From Coptis chinensis (Eukaryota; Streptophyta; Magnoliopsida; Ranunculales; Ranunculaceae): a stretch of 64,000 nucleotides of DNA. The notes under the pieces were generated by a model, which did no database searches, was not told the origin of the DNA, and saw nothing but the letters and a program-made list of their open reading frames with translations. Below, piece by piece: positions 470 to 54,260 of this stretch. The position numbers and the translations under genes are program-made. Location: the NCBI GenBank assembly GCA_015680905.1, contig CM027378.1:8661001-8725000 (forward strand), given 5' to 3'. Position 1 is the first letter of the stretch. Each line of letters begins with the position of its first letter.

Positions 470-835
470 CGTGGGGAGAAAGGGACTATGAACATCTCAT
501 TATTCATAGCTACCGAAACTATGAACAATTCTACTTTCGGTATGTTTCAGATAATCGACGCATTCACTACGAACAATCAATGTTTATAGTCATGAGCTAT
601 GAATATTCTTTGTTCATACCACAATTCGACTATGAACAGTGATTGTTCATAGTTCGGTAGCTATGAACGATGATTGTTCATAGTTCGGTAGCTATGAACA
701 CTCAATGCTATGAACAATGAGTGTTGAGCTATGAACAATGATTATTCATACCACAATTGACTATGAACAATGATTGTTCATAGTCGTGAGCTATGAACAT
801 TCTTTGTTCATACCACAATTGGATTATGAACATAA
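470..835. repeat. Palindrome array A (ATGAACA...TGTTCAT)
   Basis: Cluster of near-perfect palindromes with core ATGAACAATGATTGTTCAT; the copy at 761-783 has 11-nt arms and a 1-nt centre. Spacers repeat the phrases TTCGGTAGC, CACAATT and GTCGTGAGC, so the cluster is a higher-order tandem repeat. The right MULE copy carries the same cluster in the same order at 53895-54260. Confidence 0.85.
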
Positions 836-884
836 TGTAAGGTTGAGGTTGGAGCTTTGCAGAGGAATATGTCATATGTTAACA

Positions 885-1320
885 TAACATTCTAGTATGA
901 CAAATATAGTGTTATATCTATCTGTGATTCTTATGTTATACTACCAAACTAATATATTATAAAACTGACATAACATTCGAAGTATGACATATATAGTGTC
1001 ACATAACATTTGAGTATGACATATAGTATCATATATATCGATTGATCGTAGAACTTATGACATACTACCAATGTATAAAACTCATACTAGCATATATTAT
1101 AAAAAGTAACATAATATTCGAAAGTATGACATATATCTAATTGTGATTGCTACGCTTTATGAGACCCAACGATAAAACTCTTATTGACATAGCTTATAAA
1201 AAGTGACATAACATTTGAGTATGACATATAGTCATATATATCGATTGATTGTAATTTTTATGACATACTACTACCAAACGTATAAAACTCTTATTGACAT
1301 ACTATCCTCTTAAACAATTG
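885..1320. repeat. AT-rich palindromic tandem repeat, second block
   Basis: Four or so degenerate units, each with AAGTGACATAACATT, a TATGACATATA palindrome, a TATCTATCTGTGATT-like stretch and TACTACCAAAC. The right MULE copy keeps only the first part of this block before its deletion point. Confidence 0.7.
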
Positions 1321-1556
1321 TTTTATTGTACCATCCATAAAGTATGATATATTTTCTGTTTATAGAACATGAGTACGATAAACTACATCCTATATGACAT
1401 TTTTTATAACATATATCCATGCTTTTTACAATGCAATACCGGGTAGTAGGTCACGTGACTCAGACTCTATGAAATATTAACTTATGAGTAATACTCGTCA
1501 CACCCGATTGTCTTTCTACACACGGCAAATTTATTCCAAAAAACTGGTACGCTCTC

Positions 1557-1675
1557 TCTCTCCACACCCCATTTTTGTTAATATGACCATTATAACCTTA
1601 AATAACTCTCAACTCTCTCCACACCCCATTTTTGTTAATATGACCATTATAACCTTAAATAACTCTCTCCACACT
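1557..1675 (+). repeat. 57-bp tandem duplication
   Basis: A segment starting CTCTCTCCACACCCCATTTT and running through TTAATATGACC and CCTTAAATAACTCT is present twice head to tail, followed by a partial third start. It lies upstream of the presumed transposase start and may be part of the element's promoter or leader. No function is assigned. Confidence 0.8.
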
Positions 1676-1843
1676 CCATTGTAATTCAAACGAAGCTCTT
1701 CACCGCACTTACTACTCTCTATTTAACACTCCTACCACTCATGCTCTCTCTCAAATTTTCCCCCTCCCTCTGTTGTTCTCTTTAGGTTAGTCTTGAGTCA
1801 CCCACAAAATTGTTGTTATTCCCACCAAATTTTCACTTTAAGA

Positions 1844-2042
1844 ATGGACTCATGTGTCTTTGGAAGCAACGTTCAAGATAAATTCTCCCGCCAAAATCAA
1901 AATGATAACTTTGATTAGTGTTAAAAGTGACATGGAGTTAGCTTTAACACTATCGCAATCAAATTATTATTCCGATGATGAACTTTACAACAATGTTGAA
2001 ATTAGCTATCCCGATATGACCGAATCATTTACAACAATTGAG
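1844..2042 (+). pseudogene. Candidate first exon of the MULE-L transposase gene
   Basis: An ATG at 1844 opens a short frame that hits a stop after about 24 codons. A second frame through the same region (GTG at 1854) reads as an acidic stretch and ends ...FTTIE just before GTAATA, a plausible splice donor; a TTACGCAG acceptor-like site follows near 2145. CTCTCTC and TATTTAACAC stretches upstream look like a leader. The right MULE copy lacks this exon entirely, joining straight to the ACAACAATTGAG sequence at its end. The exon model is inference from splice-like sites and position. Confidence 0.35.
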
Positions 2043-2118
2043 GTAATAATGTAATTTGAAAGCTTGTATTTTTTATTTATTTTATCAATAACTTAGCAAA
2101 AACAATTTTAAATCAATA

Positions 2119-4120
2119 GTATCTAAGATCAAGGGTTTACGCAGGTCTTCAAGATCGCCACTCGTTGATCCGATGGTGTTTCGGTTTGGTATGATATTTG
2201 AGTTATGGTTGTGATATCAAGGTCCGATAATTCGAGGGACTTGAAGACCTAGAGTTTTCTTGAGTTGCAAAAGGAGTGGAAAATTTAGACCATCCGTAAA
2301 GCCGAAAATATTGAACAAAAACCAAAGAATATAGGCAATCCGGTTTGAAGAAATGTGGTCATCCATTTGTGTTGAAAGGGAATTACGAAATGAAGGTGGA
2401 TGGATATCGAAGTGTTATGTGTGGAACTCATAATCATACTATTGGGGAGCATCTTATAGGTCGCGGCATTCCGGAAGGTTAAAAGTCAAGAAAAATTGAT
2501 TGTTCAGATTTGTCTTTGAGTGGTGTTAAACCGCTTGAAATTTTACCCCTCTTGAAACAGAGAGATGACAATAATTTGTCAAACAAAAGCACTTTATACA
2601 ATTATCGTCACAAGAATCAGTTGGTTCGGTTGAGTGGAAGAAACCAAATGCAAGAATTTCTAAGAAATTTAGAAGAATTTGGGTACACAGAGTTTCATAG
2701 GGATAATCCAGTAACAGGTGAATGTAGAGATTTGTTGTTTGCACATCCCCAATCAATTCATTTGGCAAAGTGTTTTCCCGAGGTCATTGTCATGGATTGC
2801 ACGTACAAGACGAATGTCTTCAAGATGTCATTGTTTGAAGTTGTTGGGTTCACATCCACGATGAAGACATTCTGTATTGCTTTTGGGTATTTGGAGATTG
2901 AGAAAGAAGGTTCTTACCTATGGGTTTTGAAGAGGTTGCGTGATATTCTAGACTACAAAGCTACTTCTGTAAAGATAATTACGACTGATTGTGAGTTGGC
3001 ACTTATGAATGCGATAGCTATAGTGTTTCTGAAGTCACACACTTCTTGTGTCGAAGTTCACATCAGGAGGAACATTGAGACAAAGGCCAAAAAAACATTT
3101 GAGAAATTTGTTGAGTATGAACAATTTATGTTTATGTTCGAAACAGTGATAACAAATCGTATTGAAGTTGAGTACTTAGAACACCTACGTTGTTTTAAAC
3201 TTGAGTACGGAGATCATTATGGTGTTGTGGAATACATAGAAGACCAGTGGCTTTCGAAGTACAAAGAAAGGTTTGTCTCGGCTTGGATAGATCTCCATAT
3301 GCATTTTGGTACTTCGAGCAGTAACCGAATTGAAAGTATGCATTCCTCTTTGAAGAGGCATTTGCGTTCTAGCAATAATGGTAACTTCTGACGAAACTTT
3401 AATTTGATTAATAATCTCCTGACAAACCAAGTGACAGAAATTGAAAGTTCTTTTAATAGGAGCTTGAATCTGCGGGATCATCGTTACAAAAAAACACATA
3501 TGTGCAACTTAGAGGGTACATTTCTAGAGATGCATTGGATTTGATAGCAAAAGAGCTAATAAGGTCCGTTAGAGTTGCGGATGATGAAATTCGTTGTCGT
3601 TGGTTTACAAGAGTATGTATGGGCTTCCTTGTGCGCATGAGTTATGTGAAATTGTTCTAATTGGTATGGGAAGCATCCCCTTATCTTTGATACACCCTAG
3701 GTGGAGACATCTTAGTAGCACTCGATTGATCTTCCTAATGGGTCCTTTGATATTTAGCCCGAAGCTTGCAATTTATTCGGAAGAAGTTTCACCGCTAATA
3801 CCGGATGAACAAAAGGTTTTGATGCTGAAAAAATGTGTAGAACTAGGTGATCCAAAGGCAACTTTCAGGCGAGAGCCGGGTCAACACCAATGTGAGGGGT
3901 AGGCCACCGGAATAAAAATTGGTGTGAAGACTTGTAAAGATAAAAGGGACACAAAAGAGAGCCCGACTTCGAAAGTATGCACAAACGGTTGAGGAACAAA
4001 TTGTAACTCAAGAAAGCAAGAATAGTAAAGCCAAGAAGTTGGTACCATGCAAAAGAAAACCAAGAAGAACTCATATTCAAGTGTTTGTAGATTTATTCGA
4101 AATTGGGTCTAAATGGGATG
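2119..4120 (+). pseudogene. MULE transposase (DDE type) with SWIM zinc finger, left copy, broken
   Basis: The longest open stretch, 2510-3391 (293 aa), carries a MULE transposase core: IVMDCTYKTN (first catalytic Asp), IITTDCELALMNAI (second Asp), VHIRRN, and NRIESMHSSLK (catalytic Glu region). Upstream, 2280-2480 has a degraded DNA-binding domain ending CGTHNHTIGEHLIGR, typical of the zinc-binding domain ahead of MULE transposases. After a frameshift at about 3390, 3594-3720 carries YGLPCAHELCEIV, the C-x-H half of a SWIM finger, then a basic linker. The usual LCRVH before the alpha-helical insertion is corrupted to SCVEVH here, while the right copy keeps LCRVH. Stops and shifts between domains make the copy non-functional as it stands. 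The order DNA-binding, DDE, SWIM, OTU matches a plant MULE class often misnamed PKS-NRPS hybrid synthetase-like in automated annotation. Confidence 0.85.
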
Positions 4121-4149
4121 ATGGGCTACGTGACTTAAATCCATTGATC

Positions 4150-4752
4150 TGAGACTTCATTGTGGATTGGCAAGATGTTGAACCGAATGGACATTATGGA
4201 TTTAGCGATTGCACGATGCTTAGGGTCTAATGGAGGTGATGCATGGATTCTTGTGGAGGGCTCTTATGTCGACAGAGTTGATTTCCCATGAGGCAGATTA
4301 TACTTCAATGATGGGTGGAGAAGAACGAAAAGAAGCGATCAAGACAAATCTACGATGTACAGTTCCATATACGATGAACCCCAAAGAATGGTTTGAACTT
4401 CCTTCAATGGGATTTTTAGCCGCTAATACTTTTCGGTGTGTCCTTGTCGTCATTGGAGAGAAAGAATGTATGTCATACTTTCCTTTGTGGATCGCCCCGA
4501 TCCAACTTCGTGTCCGTGATAGCGCGCAATAGGCCACATTGGAAGAGGCACACATTTTGTGAAACTCGTGCTTGAAGATGATAGTCCTATTCCGCCACTT
4601 GCTCCAGGGTGGGAGTCATTTGCATGGACAGAAGCTTGGGATTGGGCAACTATAATGGAACCAAGGATCGTGAAGTGGTATAAAAAAGGGTTCCAAAAAT
4701 GTTATGGATTTAGACCTTCGAACTATCCTTGTAATTGTGGTTTTTGGCTTTA
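4150..4752 (+). pseudogene. OTU-like cysteine protease domain of MULE-L, degenerate
   Basis: The open stretch 4230-4532 reads RALMSTELISHEADYTSMMGG, then EWFELPSMGFLAANTF, VLVVIGEKE and YFPLW. This is the pattern of the OTU-like domain that follows the SWIM finger in one class of plant MULE proteins. A following stretch ends in EDDSPIPPLAPGWESFAW and WATIMEPRIVKWYKKGFQ, also typical of the tail. The catalytic-Cys motif upstream reads GHYGF (about 4190-4204); the right copy has GHCGF, so the left copy has a TGT to TAT change at the catalytic position. Frame breaks at about 4230 and 4530 disrupt it further. Substrate and role in transposition are unknown for this class. Confidence 0.7.
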
Positions 4753-4857
4753 ATATCTATTTTGTGTATGTGTATATACCGGTCATAAATTGCGAATGTA
4801 TTAGAATATGTCAAAAATGGTATTAACTAGTTTTTGTTAAGTGCTCAGTAAATAGCA

Positions 4858-5112
4858 TTAAAATGCAAGAATATGGTAAGTGCTTTGTCGGTTTAAGGTA
4901 GGAACCAAAGGCGATCGAGCTTCAGGGCGGTGAGCTTTATCACTTGTGTTGTGACAAAAGAACACCGGTTGCCTTTTTACAAAGACAAAGTGAACGAGGG
5001 ACTGATGGGTTCTAGAACAAGCTATCTTAATTGTAATAAGAATTCGTGGACCCGAACTAGCAAGGATATTCCTATCATACAAGAAATGCAAAAGATTTTT
5101 TTTTTTCTCTTG
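4858..5112 (-). CDS. Conserved small antisense ORF at the MULE 3' end, left copy
   Basis: On the minus strand, converging with the transposase, a frame of about 80 residues reads LHFLYDRNILAS, SRTHQSLVHF, VFFCHNTSDKAHRPEAR and PLVPTLNRQSTYHILAF before a TAA. The same peptide, interrupted by one indel, is encoded at the 3' end of the right copy (50690-50925), there preceded by CTTTCTTGCAG, a good splice acceptor. Conservation in both copies suggests a real exon rather than a shadow. I do not recognise the family. MuDR of maize also has a second gene convergent with its transposase, but no sequence similarity to mudrB is claimed. Confidence 0.35.
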   Translation of the reverse strand, partial: QEKKKNLLHFLYDRNILASSGPRILITIKIACSRTHQSLVHFVFVKRQPVFFCHNTSDKAHRPEARSPLVPTLNRQSTYHILAF

Positions 5113-5590
5113 TAAACATAAGTCGAGTATGTTTATGATGCTCGCAAATGTACTCGAATCCTCGTTTTTATAGCTAATTTTGGCACTTGTTTGAACTTGC
5201 ATTAATTTAGTGAATTGGCAATGGAACGAGCAACCCAGAGTCCAATACACATCTTAATCTCTGACAAATGTTTCTTAATCACGTTTTGCACAAACTTTTG
5301 TTTTTCAAACATTCTCTTATAACATTTAAAAGTTTGGGATATCATATGTAGCAATGACTTCATAGAGATTACAATTATCATTAAACCCTAACTATCAATG
5401 TTCTAAACCGTCATTTTAAACATGCCTCCACGAACACGAGGATGATCAAGCACCTAAACCCGAAAAAGAAAATGTAACGAAGTGCCACCAATTCCCATTG
5501 TTGACAACTCCTCCACTAGAAATTTCATTGCCAACCATCGTGGAAGCTTTAGAGTAGGTTCATCTCTCTTTCATTTTGATTTAGTTATGA
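5113..5590. other. No gene seen; decayed 3' flank of MULE-L
   Basis: Low-complexity A/T stretches, a poly-T run at about 5096-5105 and a segment resembling a short 5' leader (ATGCCTCCACGAACACGAGG at 5421) that closes at once. No conserved protein was recognised. Confidence 0.5.
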
Positions 5591-5790: not shown

Positions 5791-5984
5791 TGAATGTTCT
5801 TAGAATTTGTTGTTCTCTCGCCAAAATTTTATAACCGGTCGAAATATATTTTATACCCCTTTATCTTATCTTCACTCTCTTATCTTATCTTCAATGCTAC
5901 TCTATTGTCCTCCATACTACATAGTGGACTTTAAGTGTTCATACTCCTAGTGGCTCAAACAGGGGGGGTATCTCAAATTGACCC

Positions 5985-6180
5985 ATGAACATTCAGGTGT
6001 TCATACTCTAGTGGACTATGAACACTGAATGTTCATACTCTTGTTGGACTATGAACATTCAAGTGTTCATACCATTGAATTATGAGCGATTGAATGTTCA
6101 TACTCTTGTTGGACTATGAACAATGAATGTTCATACTCTTGTCGGACTATGAACAACTAATGTTCATACTCTTTGTTGGA
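5985..6180. repeat. Palindrome array B
   Basis: Five or six units of TATGAACA...TGTTCATA separated by ACTCTTGTTGGAC-like spacers. The spacer differs from array A, so this is a different subfamily of the same palindrome. Confidence 0.8.
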
Positions 6181-6229: not shown

Positions 6230-6900
6230 TGCATAGCTTATTCAGTGTCATCCATATAATGTTGTATATAAGCTCATGAAAGTAGATATGACACTATAAC
6301 CGGTCATACTTATATGTTATGTCACTTCTTACAAAATCGACGGGTCGGTATGTCACTTACTTTAAGTGACATACTTCGCAAGGTAAAACCCAATCGTTGA
6401 CATCTCATCGCATATGTCGATGCTTCCACAATGCCATTTCTAGTTGTATATATTTGGCATAAAAGTATGATATACTTTCTGTTTATAAAACTATCCTTAA
6501 TTCTTATGTACCGGTAGTAGACCAATGACTCGTGACTCTATGAAATTTTGCATAACATACTATACTATGTATGTTAATTAAAAGCATATTTACAATTATT
6601 TTTACATAATACATTCGCATCACGCGTTGGGTATGTACTTTGTTATGTATGACGGTATGCTATGATATTTTCCATGACATACTATACTATGTATGTTATT
6701 TATAATCACATACATCGTTATTTTACATAGTACCTTCGTAAGGTGTTACTTATGACATACTTTCTTGGCTATGGACTATTCGGATGACATACTATCATCA
6801 ATATAATGATATAGACAATTATTTGTTTATACTAATTTTAGTGAAGCGTTTTTAATGACATACTTTACTACATTATGAGCTAGGATTTTTAGTGAACACG
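6230..6900. repeat. TGACATAC-rich AT repeat (R1 leader, copy 1)
   Basis: The sequence carries AGTGTCATCC, GTCACTTACTTTAAGTGACATACTT (an inverted repeat), then from about 6590 a block (ACATAATACATTCG, GTATGTACTTTGTTATG, TGACATACTTTCTTGG, ATAGACAATTATTTGT, GAGCTAGGATTTT) shared with 9900-10160 and 15745-15925. In this copy the block runs directly into a FAR1-type pseudogene, while in the other two it runs into an unrelated unique segment, which suggests an element terminus. Confidence 0.65.
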
Positions 6901-6929: not shown

Positions 6930-8686
6930 TTTAGTGGGGAAGAAGTTGGGTTAGCATTACAAATAAGGATTCTTTGGAACCATCATTATGGTTTGACTAG
7001 AAAGATGCCTAAAGAAGGTGATGCAACCGCCGCGGCTTAAATATTTTATGCAGAAGAGTGCCGAGAATCCCGGTTTTACTACGCTATTGATCTAGATCAA
7101 AATGGGACTGCATAAACTTTTTCCGGGTTGATGGGAGGTCTCGAAAGTATGCGATATGAGTATTTCGGGATGTTGTCTCTTTTGATACCACATAACGCAC
7201 GAATGCATACTCTATGCCTTTTGCCCCCTTTTATCGAGTCAATCAAAGATTGATTGATTCAGCTTATTTGGTTGCTATTTGCTACTTGATGAGACGTAAG
7301 ATACATTCATATGGTTGTTTAAGGCCCGGCTTTGTAGCCATGGGTGGTCGTGGCGCCAACCGTAATCATCACTTACGGTGATAGAGCGATGACGCAGCCA
7401 TTGCAAAAGTGTTCCCCGATACTGGCCATCGTTATCATCTTTGGCATATTATGCAGAAATTTCAAGAGAAGCTATCCTTTACTAAAATTGAGACACCGTA
7501 ACCGACTGAATAATACTATTTCTCCTCGATTTTTTGCTAAAGGGTAATTGTATGTATTAGATAGCAAAGAAAAACAAGATACATTTTGTGAGGGGCCCTA
7601 GGTAGACCACTCCAATACACATTTCCTAAATTTTTAAGAAATAAATCTGAAATAAGTAGAGTGTTGATTCTCTAACCTATAAACAAAATTGGGTCTATTC
7701 TCCCACCATTGCTTTCGGCCTTTTGCTGTGGTCTCTCCTCGTGATAAGATTCTTTGGTTTTGAAAGAAGATGGTGTACAATAATAGAGAAGAATGAGTTG
7801 TCCGCAAAATCCTTGGTTGACAAAAATGTATAATATCTTGGGAGAAATGGGTTCCTTGTTATCTCGGTGACACATTTTTTCTTTGGTATGCATACGACCG
7901 GGAGGAGTGAATCGATGAATTCTCTATTACGACCATCTGTAGAATTCGAAGCACTATGCCGATGGAGTTTGTACATGGTAATGAGAGATCTTTGGCTTTG
8001 ATTGATTGCTAGGAATGAAAGAGATGCCGACACGCGACTAAGCATAGTTCACTTAATTGTGGCTAAAGATGCTTTTCCTCCTTATGCATGCGCAAGGTCT
8101 AACGATTAATGCATTCAATATATTTAAGGAGCAATTAGAGAAGGCAAAGATGGAGTACAAAATTGATGGGGACGAGATTGTCAACAATGGAACCGAAGCT
8201 ACATGATGAAATTGAGAGACCCCAGAAGAAGTCCGTTTGGAAAGTGAGTTTCAATAGATGAACCTTAGAGGGAGACTGTGGAATGTAAGTATTTTCAGTT
8301 TATGGGGTTACTTTGTGGTCACATGTTAAAGATTTTTCAGCTGTTATTTAAATCGAAGAGATTCCAAGGCATTTTCTTTTGAAGCCGGTGGATGCAAAAG
8401 GCACACACGATAGAAATGGAGTTTCATAATTGGATTAGTGGCCGGCCATGAAAACCATGAACTTTTGAGAGTGGCTCATTGTATCAAGGTTGCTTCTCAA
8501 GTGGCTTACGATGTGGGGAGTAGTGTTGAGGCTTATTCATATTTTATAGAAAAGATGGATGAAATGGCTAAGTTTGTCTCAACGTTGAATATAGCTTCGA
8601 ACGAAGGAGAGGCTAAGATAATGAAGTTGAAGAGTCTTTCTTTGATACCTCATTTCATAGGTTATGATTGTGATATTAATGTTTAA
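6930..8686 (+). pseudogene. FAR1/FHY3-related (FRS) transposase-derived pseudogene
   Basis: The segment reads colinearly with FAR1-related sequences across all three frames. In order it shows EGDATAA-like and YFMQKSAENPGF with YYAIDLDQNG (7020-7100), DGRSRKYAI, VVSFDTT and YSMPFAPF (first catalytic Asp region, 7130-7220), AMGGRGANR and AIAKVFPDTGHRYHLWHIMQKF (7340-7460), GMHTTGRSESMNS (7885-7925, around the catalytic Glu), a C-G-H-MLKIFQLL SWIM remnant (8310-8360), and a tail ELLRVAHCIKVASQVA to about 8686. FAR1/FHY3 proteins are transcription factors derived from MULE-like transposases. There are many stops and shifts, so this is a decayed copy. The N-terminal zinc-binding FAR1 domain is not visible; homology starts at the right end of an AT-rich repeat, consistent with truncation. 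Confidence 0.85.
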
Positions 8687-9104: not shown

Positions 9105-9235
9105 GTGGTTGTTCATACCTATTTGGGGTATGAACAATCACCGCTCAAAACCCCAATATGAGCTATGAACACTCATTGTTCATATCTTAACATGACCTAT
9201 GAACAATCATTGTTCATGTGAACAACCATTGATGA
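9105..9235. repeat. Palindrome array C
   Basis: Four half- or full-palindrome units (TATGAACAATC...TTGTTCAT) with spacers TCTTAACATGAC and ACCTATTTGGGG. Decayed relative to arrays A and E. Confidence 0.75.
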
Positions 9236-9690
9236 TGCATTAGCCAAATGCATATGTCATTGAACTTGGCATATGTGATGCAGATGTCAGGTTGGCTCGC
9301 ATATGTCAATGAACTGGAAAAGCGGGCAACAAAGTCGGAAAGACATGGGGCCGCCATATTTGATCGTAAACGTCAAAAATAAGCATAACCCATCGCTTTG
9401 CCGTGGGCACCACCCTCTCGGCCTTAAATCCATCGTTTAGGCATTCAAAATCACGCTTTTGCCGCTTTTAGGAAAGTTTTGTTTTTGCTATATCTTTTGA
9501 TAGGAGAGTCCGTTTTTTTATTTGGCCATTTGTGTTAGTTATATTTTGATTAGTAGTTTCTTAATATGCTTATCCCAAAACTTTCCATTTTGAAAATTTT
9601 CAAGTTTTGTGGTAATCGTGGTATTTCGCCTATATAAAGGCCGGTAGTCCAGATTAGAGTTTTCAATTTTGGTTTTTGAGTTAATCATAT
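9236..9690. other. No gene seen
   Basis: Contains three related TGCATATGTCA / GCATATGTC words (9248-9310) and a moderately GC-rich stretch, then CTATATAAAGGCCGG at about 9630, a TATA-like motif with no recognisable coding sequence after it. Confidence 0.4.
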
Positions 9691-9694
9691 TAAG

Positions 9695-9815
9695 AGTTAC
9701 CACAATTGGACTATGAACAGATGATATTAAGAGTTAATCATATTATGAGCTATGAACATTCTTTGTTCATATCACAATTGGACTATGAACATTGATTGAT
9801 CATAGTTCGAGTGTG
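9695..9815. repeat. Palindrome array D
   Basis: Units CTATGAACA, CTATGAACATTCTTTGTTCAT and a decayed TATGAACATTGATTGATCATAG, with CACAATTGGA spacers as in array A. The spacer match places it in the MULE-associated subfamily. Confidence 0.75.
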
Positions 9816-13439: not shown

Positions 13440-14037
13440 CTTTACAAATAATTATTAAATATATTTAACTTTGAAATACCAACATAATGAAGCCAATTAA
13501 GAACCCAATCAATCAATAAACAATTAAAACACTCAATCAACTAAAATAAATATGATTAAAGTGTAGAACTTTACAGAATCGAGGGTTGGTCGAATCAGCA
13601 AAATGTTGAGTTCAATGTTTAACATTGAAATAGTGAACAAAATTACTCGGTTAATCGGGCCTAATCGCCGAAAGTACTTGAGGAGTTTTGAGTCCGATTG
13701 GATCGGGATTAAATTGTTAGTCGGTCGGCTAAGCAAAATGAAGTTATAGTACTCAACCGATTACTCTGGGGAGTAATTTCAACGATTTAATAGCCTAGAC
13801 TAAAGCTCTATAAAGATGTACAAATGCTCCAAAATAAAATGATTTCCAAAATGATATATTACTTAAGTTTGGTGGACGTGGTGGAGACTGGAGAGAGAGA
13901 GGAGGAAATTTCGTGATTTCGGGGAAGGAAATTTTTGCGAAATTATCACGGTCGAGGGTGGTTTTGGGGAAATCTTGCTTTGGTTAATGGAAGAAAATTT
14001 ACCTCGAATTTTTATTCTTGATTTAATCCCGTGAGTT
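13440..14037. other. Possible upstream region and first intron of the 12.7-13.4 kb gene
   Basis: AT-rich sequence with a minus-strand open stretch (13533-13736, containing INRVILFTISMLNIELNI) and a GA/CT-rich tract at 13880-13910. Nothing here is assigned to a known family. The region ends where a MULE terminal fragment begins. Confidence 0.3.
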
Positions 14038-14112
14038 AGGAAGATCTAAAATTATTGTGAATATATCTGGCTGGTTCCTCCTCGTAGGATGAGGACTTTT
14101 GCCCGATTAGTA
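14038..14112 (+). mobile_element. MULE 5'-end fragment, third copy
   Basis: About 75 bp match the block at 346-425 in MULE-L and its inverse near 54300-54380 in MULE-R: GGAAGATCTAAAATTATTG, GGTTCCTCCTCGTAGGATGA and CCCGATTAGTAC. The rest of the element is missing, so this is a truncated copy or the captured-gene end of a related element. Confidence 0.75.
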
Positions 14113-14880
14113 CCAATGGCAAAGACGATGAAGCCTCACCTCCACTACTTAACCCTAACATCTTCATCACTCAAAGTTCTCTCAATCCACCGGATCAACA
14201 TAAACTTCCCCACTCAAACTATCACCGGGTCATTGACATTGCAAAATAAAAAGAAGAAGAAAATCAAATTTTTATTAAAAGCACGCACCGATAGCAAAGG
14301 ATGGAAAAAATTTCTTTCTTTCTAGCTACGCCTTTCCTTTAATTGAAGAATGAAGGGACGAAAACCTTTCACAAACCGAAAAGGCAAAACCCTTACCCGC
14401 ACAAACCTCAAAAACCGACAAAACCTTTCGTGATTCCATGATAAAGAATGATAACTCGCCTACAAACCCGTCCCAACGTGTTCCAAAACTTTATTTTATT
14501 TTATTTCATCAGTCGCTGAGATGTATCGCGGCGCCCCTCACATCTGGGCCACTCACACACAAGGGCGTGGTATGTATTGCATCAATGGCATCGTGATCTA
14601 TGGTCTCTAAGATGTATCGCGGCGCAGGATGTGAGGGCTTTGGATCAAGATTGCGTGATGCAATACACACACAACCCTGTGGATGAGTGGCCCGGATGTG
14701 GGCGTACCATACATCTCGCGCAAAGATAGATTTAGCCCTAAAATAAAGGGAGCTTGTGTAAGTACTCTCCGCTCTACACCCGCAAGACACGGTCCACACA
14801 TCGTCGTGGTTCCACCAGCATACCAATTCATCGTCATCGGTCATTCCCCTAAACACCAAACTGCTACAATTGATTAGGCT
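14113..14880. other. No assigned gene
   Basis: Two copies of a CTGAGATGTATCGCGGCGC / TAAGATGTATCGCGGCGCA motif (14516-14535, 14607-14626) and CATCTGGGCCACTCACACAC-type words recur here; a related CATCTGGGCCACACACACA occurs at about 35038. Overlapping frames on the minus strand (14509-14859) have no recognisable domain. Confidence 0.35.
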
Positions 14881-27059: not shown

Positions 27060-27395
27060 TGCAGTACAGTTTCGAATATGAAAAGTCAATGTATTATGTC
27101 ACAGGGAGTGACATAACTTTGACGTATGACATAAATTATGTCATAGTCCTGCACTGCCGCGAAATATGACGATATATGCCGGTTTTTTAGCAAACCGATA
27201 TCGATATTTTACGAATTATTGCGTCGTATGGCCATAGTTCATGACTATGAACATTGATTGTTCATAGTACATACAGTATGGACTATGAACACTCGTTGTT
27301 CATAGCTCATAGCTATGACCAATGAGTGTTCATAGCTTACCGAACTAAGAACAATCACTGTTCATAATCCAATTGTGGTATGAACAAAGAATATT
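27060..27395 (+). repeat. Direct repeat E with palindrome array, copy 1
   Basis: Starts TCGAATATGAAAAGTCAATG, then a TTATGTCA block, GCCGGTTTTTTAGCAAACC, ATCGATATTTTACGAATT and a palindrome array (ATGAACATTGATTGTTCAT and relatives). It repeats in direct orientation at 28105-28440. Confidence 0.85.
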
Positions 27396-27399
27396 CTAG

Positions 27400-28000: not shown

Positions 28001-28104
28001 GTGGTTCAAACAATTATACCTAGGCTATATGATCCCGACAATTTATCTCAGAATCAAATTTGTTTATCCTCTTCTTGTCACCCATCATCCCCCCATGCAA
28101 GTAG

Positions 28105-28440
28105 AGTTCGAATATGAAAAGTCAATGTATTATGTCATAGTGCCATAATTTTTATATATATATGTGATAATATATATTATGTTATAGTCCCAAATTAATG
28201 CACCGCCAAATATGACGACATAAGCCGGTTTTTAGCAAACCGATATCGATATTTTATGAATTATTGCCTCATTATGGCCATAGTTCATGAGTATGAACAT
28301 TGATTGTTCATATATCGTTCAAGATGGACTATGGGACTATGAACACTTATTGTTCATAGTTAGGTAGCTATGAACAAAGGAGAGTTCATAGCTACCTAAC
28401 TATGAACAATCACCGCTCATAGTTCAATTATGATCGACAA
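28105..28440 (+). repeat. Direct repeat E with palindrome array, copy 2
   Basis: Second copy of 27060-27395, including GCCGGTTTTTAGCAAACC, ATCGATATTTTATGAATT and four palindrome units (to TATGAACAATCACCG). The two copies flank the two MITE-like segments above. Confidence 0.85.
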
Positions 28441-35454: not shown

Positions 35455-35625
35455 CGTATGAACAATGAATTTCATAGTCCAAATAGGTATGAACATTCAT
35501 TGTTCATACTCCACTAGGTGTATGAACACCTAATGTTCAGAGTCTGGCCATCAAGAGTATTAACATTCATTGTTCATAGTCCACTAGACTATGAACACCT
35601 AATGTTCAGAGTCCAATGGTATAAA
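35455..35625. repeat. Palindrome array G
   Basis: Five degenerate units (TATGAACATTCATTGTTCATA, TATGAACACCTAATGTTCAGA types) with CCACTAGG and GAGTCCAATGG spacers, as in array B. Confidence 0.8.
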
Positions 35626-36369: not shown

Positions 36370-36445
36370 TGTAATGTCAGGTATGAACATTCAATGTTCA
36401 TAGTTCAATGGTATGAACATTCATTGTTCATAGTCTAGAAAGGGG
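36370..36445. repeat. Palindrome array H
   Basis: Two clean units of TATGAACATTCAATGTTCATA type separated by GTTCAATGG. Confidence 0.8.
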
Positions 36446-44974: not shown

Positions 44975-44989
44975 GGCCTCATCATCTTC

Positions 44990-46185
44990 TTCACCATAGG
45001 TCGGACAATCATTTCTTGATCGTAGGGTACAACGCCACTAGATATGTTATGCAAAGAATGCTATTTCATCATCCTCTGTTATACCTTCGACATCAACAAT
45101 TACCTCGATAAAGTTCAAAGATCAACAATTAGTGTTTGAAATTTGGACCATGAACAATCAATGTTCATACTCTTATCGACTATGAACATTCAGTGTTCAT
45201 TCCTATTTGGGGGTATGAACAATGATTGTTCATAACCAGTTTAGTGGTATGAACAATATTTGTTCATAACTATTTTTGATATTAATAATACTAATACTAT
45301 AGTATATTTATACACTAATACTATAGTGTGTATTTATACACTTCATATAGGTTGAAATCTACCCCGATCGTAGGGTACAACGCCACCGATATGTTCTCAG
45401 CAGAATGCTATTTTCTCATTTGTTATAGCTTCGCATCAACAATTACCTCGATAAAGTTCAACATGAACAATCAATGTTCATACTTTATCGACTATGAACA
45501 TTCAAAGGTTCATGCCTATTTGGGGTATGAACAATATTTGTTCATAACTACTATTGATATTAATAATACTAATACTATAGTATATTTATACACTAATACT
45601 ATAGTGTGTATTTATACACTTCATATAGGTTGAAATCTACCGACGAGGGGTGCAACGTCACAGATATGTTCTCGCAAAGAATGTTCTTTTCCTCATCCGC
45701 TATAGCTTCGCATCAACAATTACCCGATAAAAGTTCAAAGATCAACAATTAGTGTTTGAAATTTGGACCATGAACAATCAATGTTCATACTCTTATTGAC
45801 TATTAACATTCAGTGTTCATCCGCGAGCGTAGCTTAACTCTTGAGGTCGGGCCAAAAGCCCCCTAAAATCCACTTTGTTGGTGTCCGTCTGCACTGCACT
45901 CTCTCTAATAGTCTCTCTCTCTTCTCCTCCGCACTTCATCTCCTCCCCTTCATCTTCCTTCTCTCATCTCTGATCTTCTTCATCATCCCCTCCTCCTCAT
46001 CTCCCTCCTCCTTCATCTTCCTCCTCTCATCTGGCCGATCTTCTTTCATCTCCTCCTTCATCTTCCTCCTCTTATCTCCTCCCTTGGTACGCCACGCCCC
46101 AACCACTTGTATATGCAGTTATTCTAGTTATACACTAATACTATAGTGTGTATTTATACACTTCATATAGGTTGAAATCTACCTG
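44990..46185. repeat. Triplicated 290-360-bp unit with palindrome arrays, one unit split by an insertion
   Basis: Units begin GATCGTAGGGTACAACGCCAC or GACGAGGGGTGCAACG, pass through TTCGCATCAACAATTACC and a palindrome cluster (CATGAACAATCAATGTTCAT), and end TAGTGTGTATTTATACACTT and CATATAGGTTGAAATCTACC. Unit ends lie at about 45362, 45650 and 46185. Unit 3 is split between 45830 and 46125 by a CT-rich segment of about 295 bp (TCTCCTCC and CTTCATC words) starting CCGCGAGCGTAGCTTAACTC. On the minus strand unit 1 reads FIEVIVDVEGITEDDEIAFF, so the tripled unit includes the N-terminal coding part of the FCP1-like gene. Confidence 0.8.
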
Positions 46186-47440
46186 ATCAACTTTTAACAT
46201 GTTGAGTGCTGTGCTTCGGAATTGTCCAATCAATTTCTGCATATTCCATCTCGCACACCTTGGGAATTTTCTTTCATGATTTTCCACCTTTTTAATGAGT
46301 GTGGTGTGCTCACATATCCAAAACTGCAATGTGTGTGATGAAACCCATATTTAGTGCTAAAAATGTTATACAAAACAGGCATTTACAAAGATTTCATATA
46401 TGAACAATCATTGTTCATACTCCACCAATTGTTATACAAACATACAAACATATATATTAAGGAGATGCAGTTGAAATACTATACCATAAACATTATTGTG
46501 CATCCACTGATCGCCTTTATCTTCGCCTTTTGTGCTTTTGGCTGCAAAGAATCAATTCGTCGTGGATAGCATTGGGCCAAGACAACTTTCTCAATGATTC
46601 CAAGTCTTCTACAGCCTTGATTAAGGGCCAAGTTACTCGAATTGACGTTAGCAAAGAAGCAAGTGGTGAACATGTAAAGTTTACATCAGCCTTGAGAAAT
46701 CTTCACCGTGATGTTCATCATTTGTCTCATTCAAGGTCTGCAATATTGCACCCCTTATATCAGCCTTGTTGATTATTGATTTCTCCCCACCACCCAAGTA
46801 CTTTGATATGAATCTTGTTTGTTTATCTTTAGAACCAATAGTCTCCGTTGATTAAAAACATTTCATTCTGTAAAAGCAGCCCAAACATTAGACTTATCTC
46901 CTCATAAGTCACTTTTAAACTTTTTCCATCTATCCGAAATTCATTAGAGTTGAAATCATATTTGTCCAAGAGATTAAATATTTCTTTGTTGGGCTTGTTT
47001 ACGCTACCTTCTACAATCTCCCTTCCCACAATGCTTTAAACAACAAACTGCAATGGTGTCTTCTTCATTGCCTCAACATAATTTTCTTCGAATTTTTTTT
47101 TCCATTAGAAGTTTTACTAGTTTTATCATATAGAGAGGTCGCTTCAAGAAATGAGGTGCATGTGCCTTGGTCGATACTAGTTCTTTTCCTGATCTTCCTT
47201 TTCCTCCTCCTCTTCATTCTCCTTTTCACTCTCCTCTCTTCTTCTTTCTTCTTTTTAGAAACCGCTTCCTACTCTTCTTTTTTAGGAACTACTTTGTCGC
47301 TTGACTCTTTCTTCCTTTTCTTGGTAGGAGTCCTACTCGATTCTCGCTTCGCTTGCTTAGTTGCAGATTTCAACATGCTCTTTTCCCTGGGACTTATTTT
47401 TCTTTGATTTGTTCTTCCTCTTTGATTTGCTTTTCATCCC
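46141..47440 (-). pseudogene. Second DUF1985/Ulp1-type plant gene, N-terminal half, broken
   Basis: On the minus strand from 47440: a basic start (PREKSMLKSATKQAKRESSR, RRVKRRMKRRRKRKIRKRTS). Then 47029-46829 gives MGREIVEGSVNKPNKEIFNL, EFRIDGKSLKVTYEEISLMF and GLL, the same motif position as YLTF..DVALLTGL at 29.6 kb. Next, in another frame, AVEDLESLRKLSWPNAIHDE (46600-46540). 46329-46141 gives LQFWICEHTTLIKKVENHER and KFPRCARWNMQKLIGQF, the FW.cEHT...FPR..RW motif that closes the domain. All parts are in the right order. The 3' end runs into the triplicated unit, so no protease domain is present. A first exon may be the small frame at 47816-48034. Confidence 0.6.
46395..46428. repeat. Single palindrome unit
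   Basis: ATGAACAATCATTGTTCAT with flanking ATACTCC, an isolated unit within the 3' part of the DUF1985-like pseudogene. Confidence 0.8.
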
Positions 47441-47539: not shown

Positions 47540-47790
47540 TATGGTCGTATGAACATTCACTGTTTATAGTTCAATGGTATGAACACTAAATGTTAATAGT
47601 CCAACAAGAGTATGATCATTCAATGTTCATAGTCCACTCCATTATATGAACACTGAATGCTTATAGTCCAACAAGAGTATGAACAATGAATGTTCATACA
47701 TATATTTCCTAACATTCATATCCTAACATGTAAACCGCAAAGTTACCATGAAAATCCAAATAGTGATATGAACAAATAATGTTCATATCT
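47540..47790. repeat. Palindrome array K
   Basis: Six degenerate units (TATGAACATTCACTGTTTATA to TATGAACAAATAATGTTCATA) with GTCCAACAAGAG spacers, the array B subfamily. It lies between the possible first exon and the body of the DUF1985-like gene, so probably in an intron. Confidence 0.8.
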
Positions 47791-48949: not shown

Positions 48950-50360
48950 GTGTAAATGATAAACAGATCGCCCATTGGTTCGCACTCCATGAGCACACTA
49001 AAAATTTACATCGATGGAAGTTATCCGAAACCAAAAGAAGATGGTTTCAAAATGGGGTTTCAATACCTTAGAAAAATTCAACATTTCCAAGGGGACAGAG
49101 AGTTGATATCCGCCTCGATTGACCCATGGAGACCTGAAACCAATTCTTTCCACTTCCCGCCGCTTTGAACTTACAATTACTCTTCGGGATGTAGGTCATA
49201 TATTAGGCTTGAACATCTTTGGGAATGCCCTTGTTGACAACTTGACCGGAGTGCAGAAAAAGGCTTGCTCAAAAATTTTGGCGCTTTCACCCCTAAAGAC
49301 AAAGTAAGAGGGAAAAGCGTTGATATCCGATGGTTGATGATACCTTTTCCAATGTTGGATCTGAACATCGACAAGGGGCCACAATTGCATATGTCCCGTA
49401 CTTCATTGAAGCACCATATTTTCTGAAGGAGGGGGCAACTGTGTCCATACCAAGTACCTACAATTTCTGAACAATATTGAGTCTTGTGCCATGTATGCTT
49501 GGGCTAGTGCTACTCTTGCGTATTTATTTAAGGCCCTAAAGGGAGCATCAATCCGCCGTACACCAAATGAGTGCAAGAGAGGAACAAAATCAAATTTTTG
49601 ACTCAACTTGTATGGTTCTTCTACATTGTTGTTGGTACGTATTGTTGGGTATAGTTGAACTTTTTTGGATTAATTGTAGAGCATGTCTTCAGTGCGCATG
49701 TTGTATGGTACGCAAGATGTATGGGCCTTTAGATTTAGCCTTAATTGTATATTGTGGAATTGATGTAACTTTTAAAATTTTGACTGTAGACTTGGTTTTA
49801 TGAGAGGTTCCGCTTGTATCCATTGACTCGTGAACCAAAAGTTGTATTCCCAAGCGCTTCTTGCGATGGAAATATATCGTGGATCGAATTCACGTAAAAG
49901 CAATCATTATCAAGTTATCGAGATGAGTTGAACACACCACCTTGAGGATCGTTAGCGCCTTATCGGTACCAACAATTTATAAAACACATTATGTCCGCAT
50001 ACCGTTACTAATATTAATTTGTTTCTTAGGTTGTCCGCAGCCATGGGATAAGTGGCTTAATACTCCTGATTTTGCCTTTTGTCTTCACTCTTGGTCCCGA
50101 CACCTACCGGCTGATCCACTTCGATTATGTAGTGAAGTATATGCCCGATCGTTGTATGGGAGGCAATTTGGGTTTCAACAACATATACCAGCCCCGCCGC
50201 ATTTATGGGACCGCGGAAGCCAAATCGAATTCATGGAAAGATGTGTTAGGGAGTGGAATGATTGGTGGATGGGTCATTGTGAACACATAGTAGACTACCC
50301 TCGTGATAATACGAAAGTGAAGTGTATCCGGATTGGTACCGGATCACCGCTTTGACTCGA
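48950..50360 (+). pseudogene. Plant mobile domain (PMD, aminotransferase-like) gene, broken
   Basis: Pieces in order: GFQYLRKIQHFQGDRELISA and SIDPWRPETNSFHFP (49050-49160), LTITLRDVGHILGLNIFGN (49167-49225), RSNIGKG-like spacer, LQFLNNIESCAMYAWASATL and AYLFKALKGASIRRTPNE (49460-49570), then LGCPQPWDKWLNTPDF and RQFGFQQHIPAPPHLWDRGS with WNDWWMGHCEHIVDY (50030-50310). This is the classic PMD layout: WRPETHTFH, TLqDV..iLGL, YaWGaA.LAyLYR, RqfGl.Q.IP. PMD proteins are nuclear factors in TE silencing (the MAIL1/MAIN family) and are also carried by TEs. Frame shifts occur at about 49165, 49310 and 49570. It ends just before the MULE-R 3' end and converges with it. Confidence 0.75.
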
Positions 50361-50689
50361 AGTTACACCAATCGGCTTCCGGGCGAAGTTGTTGTTCATG
50401 GATAGATGGCAACGAGAGGTGATTTTTTGTGAATCTATTAGTTTGCTCTATACCCCAACTTCTACTATGATGTGACGAATCACTTGAAAAAAAAATTAAA
50501 ATTGGTGTTCAAATAAATAGTCCGATGGTGACCTACCCATGCCCTATTGTTGTCAATCTATGATGGACTTGTCATTACAATAGTCTCGTTATTTTTGTTT
50601 ACTTATGGTTAGTTCTATAATTGATGTAACCTCGATCTATAACAGATTATTGTAAGTTTCGTCTTTCTTGCAGAGGGAGCGCTATTTGC
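50361..50689. other. Spacer between PMD remnant and MULE-R
   Basis: No coding blocks. CTTTCTTGCAG at about 50662-50672 is a strong acceptor-like site immediately before the conserved small frame in the MULE end. Confidence 0.4.
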
Positions 50690-50925
50690 ATTTACTGTAT
50701 GACAGGAATATCCTTGGTAGTTCGCCAGTCCTGAATTCTTATTACGAATTAAGATAGCTTGTTCTAGAACCCATCACTCCCTCGCTCACTTTGTGTCAGA
50801 AAGGCAGCCGGTGTTCTTTTGTCACAACACAAGTGATAAAGCTCACCGCCCGAAGCTCGATACGCCTTTGGTTCCTACCTTAAACCGACAAAGCACTTAC
50901 CATATTCTTGCATTTTAATGCTATT
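50690..50925 (+). pseudogene. Conserved small antisense frame at the MULE 3' end, right copy
   Basis: Reads RERYLHLLYDRNILGSS in one frame and SRTHHSLAHF, VFFCHNTSDKAHRP, LVPTLNRQSTYHILAF in others, matching the left copy. It has one more indel than the left copy. It lies directly after an acceptor-like CTTGCAG. Confidence 0.35.
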
Positions 50926-51089
50926 TACAGAGCACTTAACAAAAACTAGTTAATACCATTTCGACAAATTCTAATACATTCTGCAATTTATGACAAGATA
51001 TACACATACACAAAATAGATATTAAAGCCAAAAACCTCACAAGACAAGGATAGTTACGAAAAGGTCTAAATCCATAACATTTTTGGAAC

Positions 51090-51620
51090 CCTTTTATACC
51101 ACTTCCACGATCCTTGGTTCCATTATAGTTGCCCAATCCCAAGCTTCGTCCCATGCAAATGACTCCCACCCTCGAGCAAGTGGCGGAATAGGACTATCAT
51201 CTTCAAGCACGAAGTTTCACAAAATGTGTGCCCTCCAATGTGGCCTATTGCCGCTTATCCGACACGAAGTTGGATCAGGAGCAGTCCATAAAGGAAAGTA
51301 TGACATACATTCTTTCTCTCCAATGACGACAAGGACACACCGAAAAGTATTAGCAGCTAAAAATCCCATTGAAGGAAGTTCAAACCATTCTTTGGGGTTC
51401 ATCGATATGGAACTCAGACATCGAGATTTGTCTTGATCGCTTTTTTCGTTTTTCTCCACCCATCATTGAAATATAATCTGCCTCATGGGAAATCAACTCT
51501 CAACAACATAAGAGCCCTCACAAGTAATCCATGCATCACCTCCATTAGACCCTAAGCATCGTGGCAATCACGCTTAAATCCACAATGTCCATTCGGTTCA
51601 ACATCTTGCCAATCCACAAT
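51090..51620 (-). pseudogene. OTU-like domain of MULE-R, frameshifted
   Basis: On the minus strand GHCGF keeps the catalytic Cys position (about 51590), then ALM-like, ELISHEADYISMMGGE, NPKEWFELPSMGFLAANTFR, VLVVIGEKECMSYFPLW and APGW..WDE. Small deletions in the EKRKK stretch (about 51445) and near 51250 break the frame. Compared with MULE-L, the active-site Cys is intact but the frame is worse. Confidence 0.7.
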
Positions 51621-53650
51621 GAAGTCTCAGATCAATGGATTTAAGTCACGTGAGCCCATCATCCCATTTAGACCCAATTTCGTAAATCTACAAACACTTG
51701 AATATGAGTTCTTCTTGGTTTTCTTTTGCATGGTACCAACTTCTTGGCTTTACTATTCTTGCTTTCTTGAGTTACAATTTGTTCCTCAACTGTTTGTGCA
51801 TACTCAAAAGCTGAAGGCTCTTTCTTTGTGTCCCTTTTATCTTTACAAGTCTTCACACCAATTTTTATTCTAGGTGGCCTACCCCTCACATTGGTGTTGA
51901 CCCGAGGCTCTCGCCTGAAAGTTGCCTTTGGATCACCTAGTTCTACACACTTTTTCAGCATCAAAACCTTTTGTTCATCCGGAGCTTAATCAAACTTCTT
52001 CCCGACCAGGCAAGCTCGGCTGAATATCAAAGGACCCATTAGGAAGATCAATCGGAGTGCTACTAAGTCGTCTCCACCTAGGGCGATCAAAGATAAGGGG
52101 ATGCTTCCCCTACCAATTAGAACAATTTCACATAACTTATGCGACAAGGAAGCCCATACATACTCTTGTAAACACAACGACAACGAATTTCATCCGTCTC
52201 CAACTCTAATGGACCTTATTAGCTCTTTTGCTATCAAATCCAATGCATCTCTAGAAATGTACCCTCTAAGTTGCACATATGTGTTTTGTTTGTAACGATG
52301 ATCCCGAGATTCAAGCTCCTATTAAAAGAACTTTCAATTTCGTCACTTGGTTTGTCGAGATTATTAATCAAATTAAAGTTTCAAGTGAAGTTACCATTAT
52401 TGCTAGAACGCAAATGCCTCTTCAAAGAGGAATGCATACTTTCAATTCGGTTCTTGCCGGTACCAAAATGCATATGGAGATCTATCCAAGCCGAGACAAA
52501 CCTTTCTTTTGTACTTCAAAGCCACCGGTCTTCTATGTATTCCACAACACCATAATGATCTCCGTACTCAAGTTTAAAACAACGTAGGTGTTCCAAGTAC
52601 TCAACTTCAGTACGAGCTGTTATCACTGTTTCGAACATAAACATAAATTGTTCATACTCAACAAATTTCTCAAATGTTTTTTTGGCCTCTGTCTCGATGT
52701 TCCTCCTGATGTGAACTCGACACAAGAAGTGTGCAGCTTTAGGAAACACTATAACTATCGTATTCATAAGTGCCAACTCACAATCAGTCGTAATTATCTT
52801 TACAGAAGTAGCTTTGTAGTCCAGAATATCACGCAACCTCTTCAAAACCCATAGGTAAGAACCTTCTTTCTCAATCTCCAAATACCCAAAAGCAATACAG
52901 AATGTCTTCATCGTGGATGTGAACCCAACAACTTCAAACAATGGCATCTTGAAGACATTCGCCTTGTAATGCAAATCCATGATAATGACCTCGGAAAACA
53001 CTTTGCCAAATGAATTGATTGGGGATGTGCAAACAACAAATCTCTACATTCACCATTCATCGGATTATCCCTATGAAACTCGGTAATGAAATTCTTCTAA
53101 ATTTCTTAGAAATTCTTGCATTTGGTTTCTTCCACTCAACCGAACCAACCGATTCTTGTGACGATAATTGTATAAAGTGCTTTTGTTTGACAAATTATTG
53201 TCATCTCTCTGTTTCAAGAGGGTAAAATTTCACGCCGGTTTAACACCACTCAAAGACAAATCTCAACAATCAATTTTTCTTCACTTTTAACCTTCCTTCC
53301 TTTAATGCACGACCAATAAGATGCTCCCCAATAGTATGATTATGAGTTCCACACATAACACTTTCAAGATCCATCCACCTTCGTTTCAGAATTCCCTTTC
53401 AACACAAAAATGGATGACCACATTTCTTTGAACCGGATTGCCTATATTCTTTGGTTTTTTGTTCAATATTTTCGGCTTTTACGGATGGTCTAAATTTTCC
53501 ACTCCCTTCGCGAACTCAAGAAAACTCTAGGTCTTCAAGTCCCTCGATTATCGGACCTTGATATCACAACCACAACTCCAACAAATCATACCAACCGGCC
53601 GAACACCATCGGATCAACGAGTGACGATCTTCGAAGACCTGCGTAAACCC
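51621..53650 (-). pseudogene. MULE transposase with SWIM finger, right copy, broken
   Basis: The longest frame is 53001-52516: VIIMDLHYKANVFKMPLFEV, GFTSTMKTFCIAFGYLEIEK, VKIITTDCELALMNTI, FLCRVHIRRNIETEAKKTFE and EVEYLEHLRCFKLEYGDHY. Both catalytic Asp are present; CT of the MDCTYKTN motif is changed to LH. Further on, in other frames, are GTGKNRIESMHSSLKRHL (52480-52430), DALDLIAKELIRSIRVGDG and the linker RKPRRTHIQVF. The SWIM part is damaged (ASLSHKLCEIVLIGRGS). The N-terminal CGTHNHTIGEHLIGRALKEG block lies at 53300-53360. The copy cannot encode one full protein. Confidence 0.85.
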
Positions 53651-53894
53651 TTGATCTTAGATACTATTGACGAAAATTGTTTTTTGCTAAGTTATTGATA
53701 AAATAAATAAAAAATACAAGCTTTCAAATTACATTATTACCTCAATTGTTGTATAACGCAGAAGTAGCTATGTCAGTTTTTATAATATATTCGTTTGGTA
53801 GTATAACATAAGAATCACAGATAGATATAACACTATATTTGTCATACTAGAATGTTATGTTAACATATGACATATTCCTCTGCAAGCGCTCCAA

Positions 53895-54260
53895 CCTTCT
53901 GTTATGTTCATAGTCCAATTGTGGTATGAACAAATAATGTTCATAGCTCACGACTATGAACAATCATTGTTCATAGTCAATTGTGGTATGAACACTCATT
54001 GTTTATAGCTCAACACTCATTGTTCATAGCATTGAGTGTTCATAGCTACCGAACTATGAACAATCACTGTTCATAGCTACCGAACTATGAACAATCATTG
54101 TTGATTGTTCATAGTCGAATTGTATGAACAAAGAATATTCATAGCTCATGACTATGAACATTGATTGTTCGTAGTACGTACAGTATACAGAAACATACTG
54201 GAAAGTAGAATTGTTCATAATTCGGTAGCTATGAATAATGAGATGTTCATAGTCCCTTTC
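53895..54260. repeat. Palindrome array L, inverse of array A
   Basis: Same unit order and spacers as array A in inverse orientation. Perfect or near-perfect palindromes occur at 53955-53977 and 54086-54104. It has one unit more than the left copy around 54098-54115 (ATTGTTGATTGTTCAT), a sign of unit-level turnover. Confidence 0.85.

What the first reader, a model, noticed from the sequence alone, without database searches (positions are those of the whole stretch)
470..54260. Dispersed family of near-perfect 21-23-bp palindromes in ten or more clusters
The core ATGAACAATGATTGTTCAT, with 1-nt centre and arms up to 11 nt, appears dozens of times: 470-835, 5985-6180, 9105-9235, 9695-9815, 27235-27395, 28270-28435, 35455-35625, 36370-36445, 45145-45830, 46395-46428, 47540-47790 and 53895-54260. 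At least two spacer subfamilies (CACAATTGGAC type; GTCCAACAAGAG type) are mixed across sites. Two clusters occupy matching subterminal positions of the two MULE copies, and several others border captured-looking gene fragments. Palindrome clusters can form cruciforms, bind dimeric proteins such as a transposase, or feed small-RNA production. I know of no described family with this unit.
Basis: partly seen in the sequence, partly recalled or inferred. Interest (0 to 1): 0.7.

Follow-up and report, generated by a model that had tools for sequence, protein, structure and literature searches.

The report
Palindrome arrays shared by MULE transposons
Many small jumping elements, and a separate family of larger MULE transposons, in one plant genome carry rows of the same 21-base two-fold-symmetric DNA motif, which look like docking sites for a paired DNA-binding protein that has not yet been found.

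Summary
The 19-bp core gives 85 strand matches in the window against 0.09 expected, in all twelve places named. The unit is better written TATGAACA-NTSAN-TGTTCATA. In the window's 935.6-Mb assembly the perfect-arm unit occurs 19,586 times and its reversed control 0 times. One extra centre base leaves 131.

Two carriers without shared termini were found. One is a MULE-transposase element with arrays on both sides of its gene. The other is a compact non-coding element (668-1435 bp in the best copies) without long inverted repeats, whose arms flank the array in 17 of 20 sampled loci. It makes 9-bp AT-rich target duplications: 8 of 13 scored copies perfect, plus one insertion with two empty relatives. 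That fits a non-autonomous, non-TIR MULE.

Changes in the arms are mostly one-sided and the centre length is nearly fixed, which favours a dimer-binding site over a selected hairpin. I infer arrays bound in trans by an element-encoded regulator or transposase, comparable to VANC arrays of VANDAL elements. The protein is not identified, and 4 of 5 loci with the VANC-associated DUF1985 domain held no unit.

The parts
485..835 (.). Left-end palindrome array of MULE copy 1 (CCACAATT(G)GAC and GTTCGGTAGC spacers)
   Evidence: aligns with 53900-54250 inverted
2483..3391 (+). MULE transposase domain reading frame of copy 1
   Evidence: PF10551 E 7e-18; 134 genome matches scored
5984..6168 (.). Right-end palindrome array of copy 1 (CTCTTGTTGGAC spacers)
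   Evidence: aligns with 47547-47698 inverted
9129..9218 (.). Palindrome array at the inner side of a right-end segment of a third copy of the same MULE
   Evidence: 9163-9700 about 80% identical to right-end segments of relatives on C5 and C8
9712..9804 (.). Second palindrome array of that right-end segment
   Evidence: following DNA 9951-10142 matches 6684-6872 of copy 1
27246..27399 (.). Palindrome array similar to the left-end type of copy 2; carrier not resolved
28292..28421 (.). Palindrome array; 28094-28432 is a direct repeat of 27058-27377 (78.5%)
35457..35610 (.). Palindrome array of right-end type; carrier not resolved
36382..36432 (.). Two-unit palindrome array of right-end type
45149..45821 (.). 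Three palindrome groups inside a tandemly duplicated block of about 0.3 kb
46399..46419 (.). Single perfect-arm palindrome
47548..47787 (.). Right-end-type palindrome array beside copy 2
50685..53753 (-). MULE copy 2 internal part (frame broken), 92.7% identical to 2030-5092
   Evidence: PF10551 E 1.5e-19 for 52519-53043
53900..54251 (.). Left-end palindrome array of copy 2

Best explanation
The palindromes are arrays of a 21-bp dyad (TATGAACA-NTSAN-TGTTCATA) that a dimeric DNA-binding protein recognises in trans. They are cis-modules of Mutator-superfamily transposons. Shown: the unit, its abundance, its place on both sides of a MULE transposase gene, and its place in the body of a compact non-coding element that makes 9-bp target duplications. 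Inferred: the binding protein is encoded by an autonomous MULE, the compact elements are carried or protected because they bear the array, and the array acts either to keep the elements from being silenced (VANC-like) or in transposition complex assembly (TNPA-like, recalled). I cannot decide between those two uses.
For: Abundance: 19,586 perfect-arm units, control 0. Fixed geometry: five-base centre 19,586, six-base centre 131. Sequence rather than pairing is kept: in 53 window units 42 arm changes are one-sided and 0 two-sided. In homologous arrays, conditioned on a perfect unit on one side, arms differ at 14 of 358 positions, centres at 36 of 110, the rest at 198 of 1198. Mobile carrier: array arms found in 17 of 20 loci; 9-bp duplications perfect in 8 of 13 scored copies and 8/9 in 2, and in those 10 none of 50 shifted positions reached the observed match; an insertion with perfect duplication at L038:1142/1938 and the uninterrupted site in L040 and L036. 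Transposase link: arrays on both sides of the gene in copy 1, copy 2 and the C5 relative; 11 of 50 listed six-base-centre units within 10 kb of a transposase match against mean 0.21, maximum 3 in 2000 random placements.
Against: No binding protein is identified. In 248 units from 19 genome loci 8 of 10 two-sided changes are complementary (213 one-sided; 6.8 two-sided expected), a mild excess that pairing or symmetric half-site change could give. Arms are not measurably better kept than spacers between the two young window copies (4 of 127 against 8 of 176). Unit spacing is less regular in the compact elements: 89 of 218 neighbour distances under 150 bp are 30-34 bp. Of 5 DUF1985 loci, 4 held no unit within the 7 kb read. 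The C8 relative of the MULE has right arrays only in the 17 kb read. Homologous-array counts are not independent (shared loci, both directions counted).
Confidence: 0.55

Rival explanations
1. VANC-type anti-silencing targets: an element-encoded VANC/KIU-like protein binds the arrays and strips DNA methylation from the carriers.
For: [quoted passage not shown] VANC proteins carry DUF1985 (figure legend); KIU genes are VANCs with a Ulp1 domain (PMC13317346, passages). The window holds weak DUF1985-like stretches near 29.8 kb and 41.1 kb (E 0.005 and 0.004) and an Ulp1-like stretch at 37.6-38.1 kb (E 0.07), all below the families' cut-offs.
Against: 4 of 5 sampled DUF1985 loci have no unit, and the fifth has one only because a compact element inserted there. 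By eye on the listings, 1 of 11 DUF1985 matches on C1 below 26.4 Mb lies within 5 kb of an exact 19-mer. Reported VANC motifs are 8-9 bp and not described as palindromic in the passages seen.
Confidence: 0.25
2. Transposition complex sites: the arrays bind the MULE transposase or an accessory protein, like subterminal repeats of other DNA transposons.
For: Arrays lie on both sides of the transposase gene. MULEs with subterminal tandem repeats are known: 10 of 12 long-TIR Aedes families (PMC5225508, passages).
Against: In the compact element the array sits in the middle, behind arms of roughly 200 bp, not next to the ends. The two carriers share the array but no terminal sequence was found in common (compact arms match none of the window and the two relatives).
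Confidence: 0.25
3. Hairpin or cruciform selected as a structure, or a source of small RNA.
For: The unit is palindromic; 8 of 10 two-sided changes in the genome sample are complementary.
Against: One-sided changes dominate (42 to 0 in the window; 213 to 10 in the sample). Positions 9/13, next to the stem, are complementary in 12 of 53 window units; 151 of 248 in the sample, which was picked by a 19-mer complementary there. Small RNA was not testable.
Confidence: 0.1
4. Passive minisatellite: a tandem repeat spread by hitch-hiking in a MITE-like family, with no function.
For: High-copy compact non-coding carrier; dispersed tandem structure; arms not better kept than spacers between two young copies.
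Against: The same unit sits in two carriers with unrelated ends; centre length almost invariant although centre bases vary; arms kept above the half-rate that ascertainment alone could give.
Confidence: 0.2

Closest known systems
VANDAL elements and VANC target arrays (Arabidopsis; PMC5735166 and PMC10398659, passages and one section seen)
   Same: Mutator-like, non-TIR elements (non-TIR: PMC13317346 passage); [quoted passage not shown]
   Different: Motifs there are YAGTATTAY or AGTTGTCC/AGTTGTAC; here a 21-bp dyad with strict 5-bp centre, present in two carriers without common ends; no VANC gene linked here.
Muta1 and other Aedes MULEs with subterminal tandem repeats (PMC5225508, passages seen)
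   Same: MULE, 8-9 bp target duplications, short repeats near the gene, abundant non-autonomous copies.
   Different: There the repeats are 9-15 bp inside long TIRs; here no long TIR in the compact element and the array is internal.
Subterminal TNPA or Ac-transposase sites of En/Spm and Ac (recalled, not looked up)
   Same: Many copies of a protein site inside both element ends.
   Different: Different superfamilies; sites shorter and not this dyad.
MITEs
   Same: Short, non-coding, dispersed, target-site duplication.
   Different: No long terminal inverted repeats; body is a dyad array.

Membership tests
Mutator superfamily (compact element) | Target-site duplication of about 9 bp | tested here: met
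   8 of 13 scored elements perfect 9 bp, 2 with 8/9, 3 without (16 rows, 3 alternative-end rows dropped); L038 perfect with two uninterrupted relatives
Mutator superfamily (compact element) | Long terminal inverted repeats | tested here: not met
   Ends NAGGGAGTGACTCTC and, from the other end, CAAGAAATTGG; would be the non-TIR kind
Mutator superfamily (compact element) | Mobilised by a MULE transposase | tested here: inconclusive
   Compact copies non-coding; seven window protein queries hit 1 of the 20 loci (FAR1-like, L025); no coding partner with the same ends found
Mutator superfamily (transposase carrier) | MULE transposase domain | tested here: met
   PF10551 E 7e-18 and 1.5e-19, 2.3e-24 in the C5 relative
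Mutator superfamily (transposase carrier) | Delimited ends with target duplication | tested here: inconclusive
   No convincing pair of ends and duplication found
VANDAL with VANC targets | Tandem short-motif arrays in non-coding element DNA | tested here: met
VANDAL with VANC targets | VANC-like (DUF1985) gene in the array-bearing element | tested here: not met
   4 of 5 DUF1985 loci without units; the fifth by insertion of a compact element; window traces below cut-off
VANDAL with VANC targets | Protein binding and loss of methylation | not testable with these tools
   needs EMSA, ChIP and bisulfite data
MITE | Short, non-coding, dispersed, with target duplication | tested here: met
   668-1435 bp for the eight perfect copies; 52 clusters in 26.4 Mb
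MITE | Terminal inverted repeats | tested here: not met
Satellite DNA | Long arrays at few places | tested here: not met
   Short arrays (5 to 46 units per 10 kb in 20 loci), dispersed

The most novel reading that the evidence does not exclude
One transposon-encoded dimeric protein acts in trans on about twenty thousand perfect dyad sites, and unrelated MULE lineages of this genome have converged on, or exchanged, the same docking module, so that compact non-coding elements parasitise the regulator (possibly an anti-silencing factor unrelated to VANC) of another family.
Probability: 0.3. Interest if true: 0.8.

Novelty: new variant of a known kind. Interest (0 to 1): 0.58.

Why it matters
If the dyad is a shared docking site, it gives a clear test of how non-coding transposons recruit or escape control in trans: a defined 21-bp site, strict spacing, natural copies with 5 to 46 units per 10 kb, and relatives with the empty site. 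It would extend the sequence-specific anti-silencing or transposition-site idea from short asymmetric motifs to a dimer site used by more than one element family.

Tried and rejected
Terminal inverted repeats and target duplications for the window's array pairs: none convincing, also for the transposase relatives. Reading the window's paired arrays as the two ends of six separate small elements: given up, because 9129-9804 proved to be one right-end segment and most sampled genome arrays belong to a compact element absent from the window. DUF1985/VANC linkage: proposed from weak window traces, then mostly contradicted. Hairpin selection: not supported in the window, mild contrary signal in the larger sample. 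Prokaryote and viral collections: 0 matches to a double unit. Literature: six unit strings, 0 papers; topic searches; the paper I recall as 'Fast co-evolution of anti-silencing systems...' (EMBO J 2022) is not held, so whether it describes a similar motif is unknown. Genome counts for a four-base centre and for the second dyad TATGACA-N7-TGTCATA were asked for and never answered.
Full report
What is there. The 19-bp core gives 85 strand matches with up to 3 mismatches in the window, against 0.09 expected in shuffles. Written out, the unit is TATGAACA, five bases, TGTTCATA. The centre is mostly NTSAN: in 53 window units position 10 is T in 46, position 12 is A in 46, and the middle base is C or G in 43. 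In the window 25 of 37 neighbour distances under 70 bp are 30-34 bp.

Genome scale. The window lies at G000:C2:8661001-8725000 of a 935.6-Mb assembly in 116 contigs. Exact 19-mers: 1970 forward and 2015 reverse, reversed control 0 and 0. Perfect-arm units with a five-base centre: 19,586, control 0. With a six-base centre: 131, control 0. The first 100 exact 19-mers listed on C1 form 52 clusters over 26.4 Mb. That it is a plant is inferred from plant-type families: PMD, FAR1 and DUF1985 (0 of 14 control genomes).

Binding site or hairpin. In the 53 window units with at most 3 arm mismatches there are 42 one-sided and 0 two-sided arm changes, and positions 9/13 are complementary in 12 of 53. With up to 6 mismatches, 66 units show 96 one-sided and 10 two-sided changes, 4 of them complementary. 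In 248 units from 19 genome loci (L014 left out as a duplicate of L013) there are 213 one-sided and 10 two-sided changes, 8 complementary, with 6.8 two-sided expected. That is mostly one-sided, with a mild complementary excess. In six homologous array pairs, given a perfect unit on one side, arms differ at 14 of 358 positions, centres at 36 of 110 and the rest at 198 of 1198; both directions are counted, so these are not independent. An earlier count on eight pairs gave 33 of 522, 42 of 154 and 56 of 300. Between the left ends of the two young window copies arms (4 of 127) and spacers (8 of 176) do not differ clearly.

Carrier 1, a transposase-bearing MULE. Copy 1 (2483-3391, PF10551 E 7e-18) and the inverted, broken copy 2 (E 1.5e-19) share 2030-5092 with 53753-50685 at 92.7%. 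Arrays lie on both sides in each: 485-835 and 5984-6168; 53900-54251 and 47548-47787. A relative on C5 has a left array (A5217-5449) and two right arrays (A11902-12001, A12664-12760); a relative on C8 has right arrays only in the 17 kb read. Window 9163-9700 is about 80% identical to the segment beside the right arrays of both relatives, so 9129-9804 is the right end of a third copy. Of the 131 six-base-centre units, 50 were listed; 11 of these lie within 10 kb of one of the transposase matches, against a mean of 0.21 and a maximum of 3 in 2000 random placements. One of the 11 is in the window and two are in one element. I found no clean ends or target duplication for this element.

Carrier 2, a compact non-coding element. 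I took 20 of the first 23 clusters on C1, leaving out three close to another. All 20 hold arrays of at least 5 units. Similarity between loci is mostly confined to the array and short flanks; L013 and L014 are copies of each other over their whole length. Arms from eight copies in seven loci match 17 of 20 loci, both arms in 15; leaving out the seven source loci, 10 of 13. L023, L025 and L028 match neither, and neither do the window or the two MULE relatives. Ends are NAGGGAGTGACTCTC and ACCAATTTCTTG. Of 13 scored elements 8 have a perfect 9-bp duplication and 2 have 8 of 9 (L010, L016); L013, L021 and L027 have none. In the ten, 0 of 50 shifted positions reach the observed match. In L038 a 787-bp copy has the duplication TTACATTAA, and L040 and L036 show the site uninterrupted; those two are 95% alike, so they are not independent. 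The sample was chosen by one exact 19-mer variant on the first 13 Mb of one contig, so the share of carriers genome-wide is not known.

How it may work. A row of identical dyads with a fixed centre, kept while spacers change, is what a dimeric binding protein would leave. Its presence in two carriers without common ends suggests recognition in trans. The closest studied case is VANC, which binds short motifs in tandem repeats of non-coding VANDAL DNA and removes methylation (PMC5735166, passages; PMC10398659, outline and introduction). VANC proteins carry DUF1985. The window has only weak DUF1985 and Ulp1 traces. Of 149 DUF1985 matches in the genome I read 5 loci of 7 kb: 4 have no unit and the fifth owes its array to an inserted compact element; three of the five (L036, L038, L040) are related copies. 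This speaks against a simple VANC reading. Transposase or accessory-protein binding, as in MULEs with subterminal repeats (PMC5225508, passages), is about as likely. Against it, the array sits in the middle of the compact element.

Verdict. The MULE link is partly right, with a compact, MITE-like but non-TIR carrier as the usual one in the sample. The protein and the effect are unknown.

Noticed in passing
window 120-1413, 26612-27145, 53826-54538: A second 21-bp dyad, TATGACA-N7-TGTCATA: 15 matches with up to 2 mismatches against 0.48 expected, mostly beside the left-type arrays; also in the MULE relatives. Genome count unanswered.
   Followed up: partly
window 53769-58346; L031 1077-3910: A FAR1-domain MULE gene (PF03101 E 8e-17, PF10551 E 3e-26 in L031) lies left of the transposase MULE both in copy 2 and on C5 (87% identical), but not beside copy 1.
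   Followed up: partly
window 49679 (+) and 58332 (-); L031:1091: End-like motif GAGCATGTCTTCAGTGCGCA, inverted at two window places about 8.7 kb apart; no matching target duplication seen.
   Followed up: partly
window 49055-50271: Broken plant mobile domain gene pieces (PF10536, best E 4e-13) beside copy 2.
   Followed up: no
window 7172-7460: MULE domain trace of FAR1-like type just under the Pfam cut-off (25.9 of 27.6 bits).
   Followed up: no
window 39211-40569: 416-bp tandem repeat, 3.4 copies, between DUF1985-like and Ulp1-like traces on the minus strand.
   Followed up: no
window 14033-14117: An isolated 85-bp copy of the DNA just outside the left array of copies 1 and 2.
   Followed up: no
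L016:2950-4872: Compact-element ends 2.57 kb apart enclosing reverse transcriptase (PF00078 E 1e-21) and RNase H-like stretches, probably a nested retrotransposon.
   Followed up: no
L012:3594-6567: Two compact elements, each with its own perfect 9-bp duplication, about 350 bp apart.
   Followed up: no
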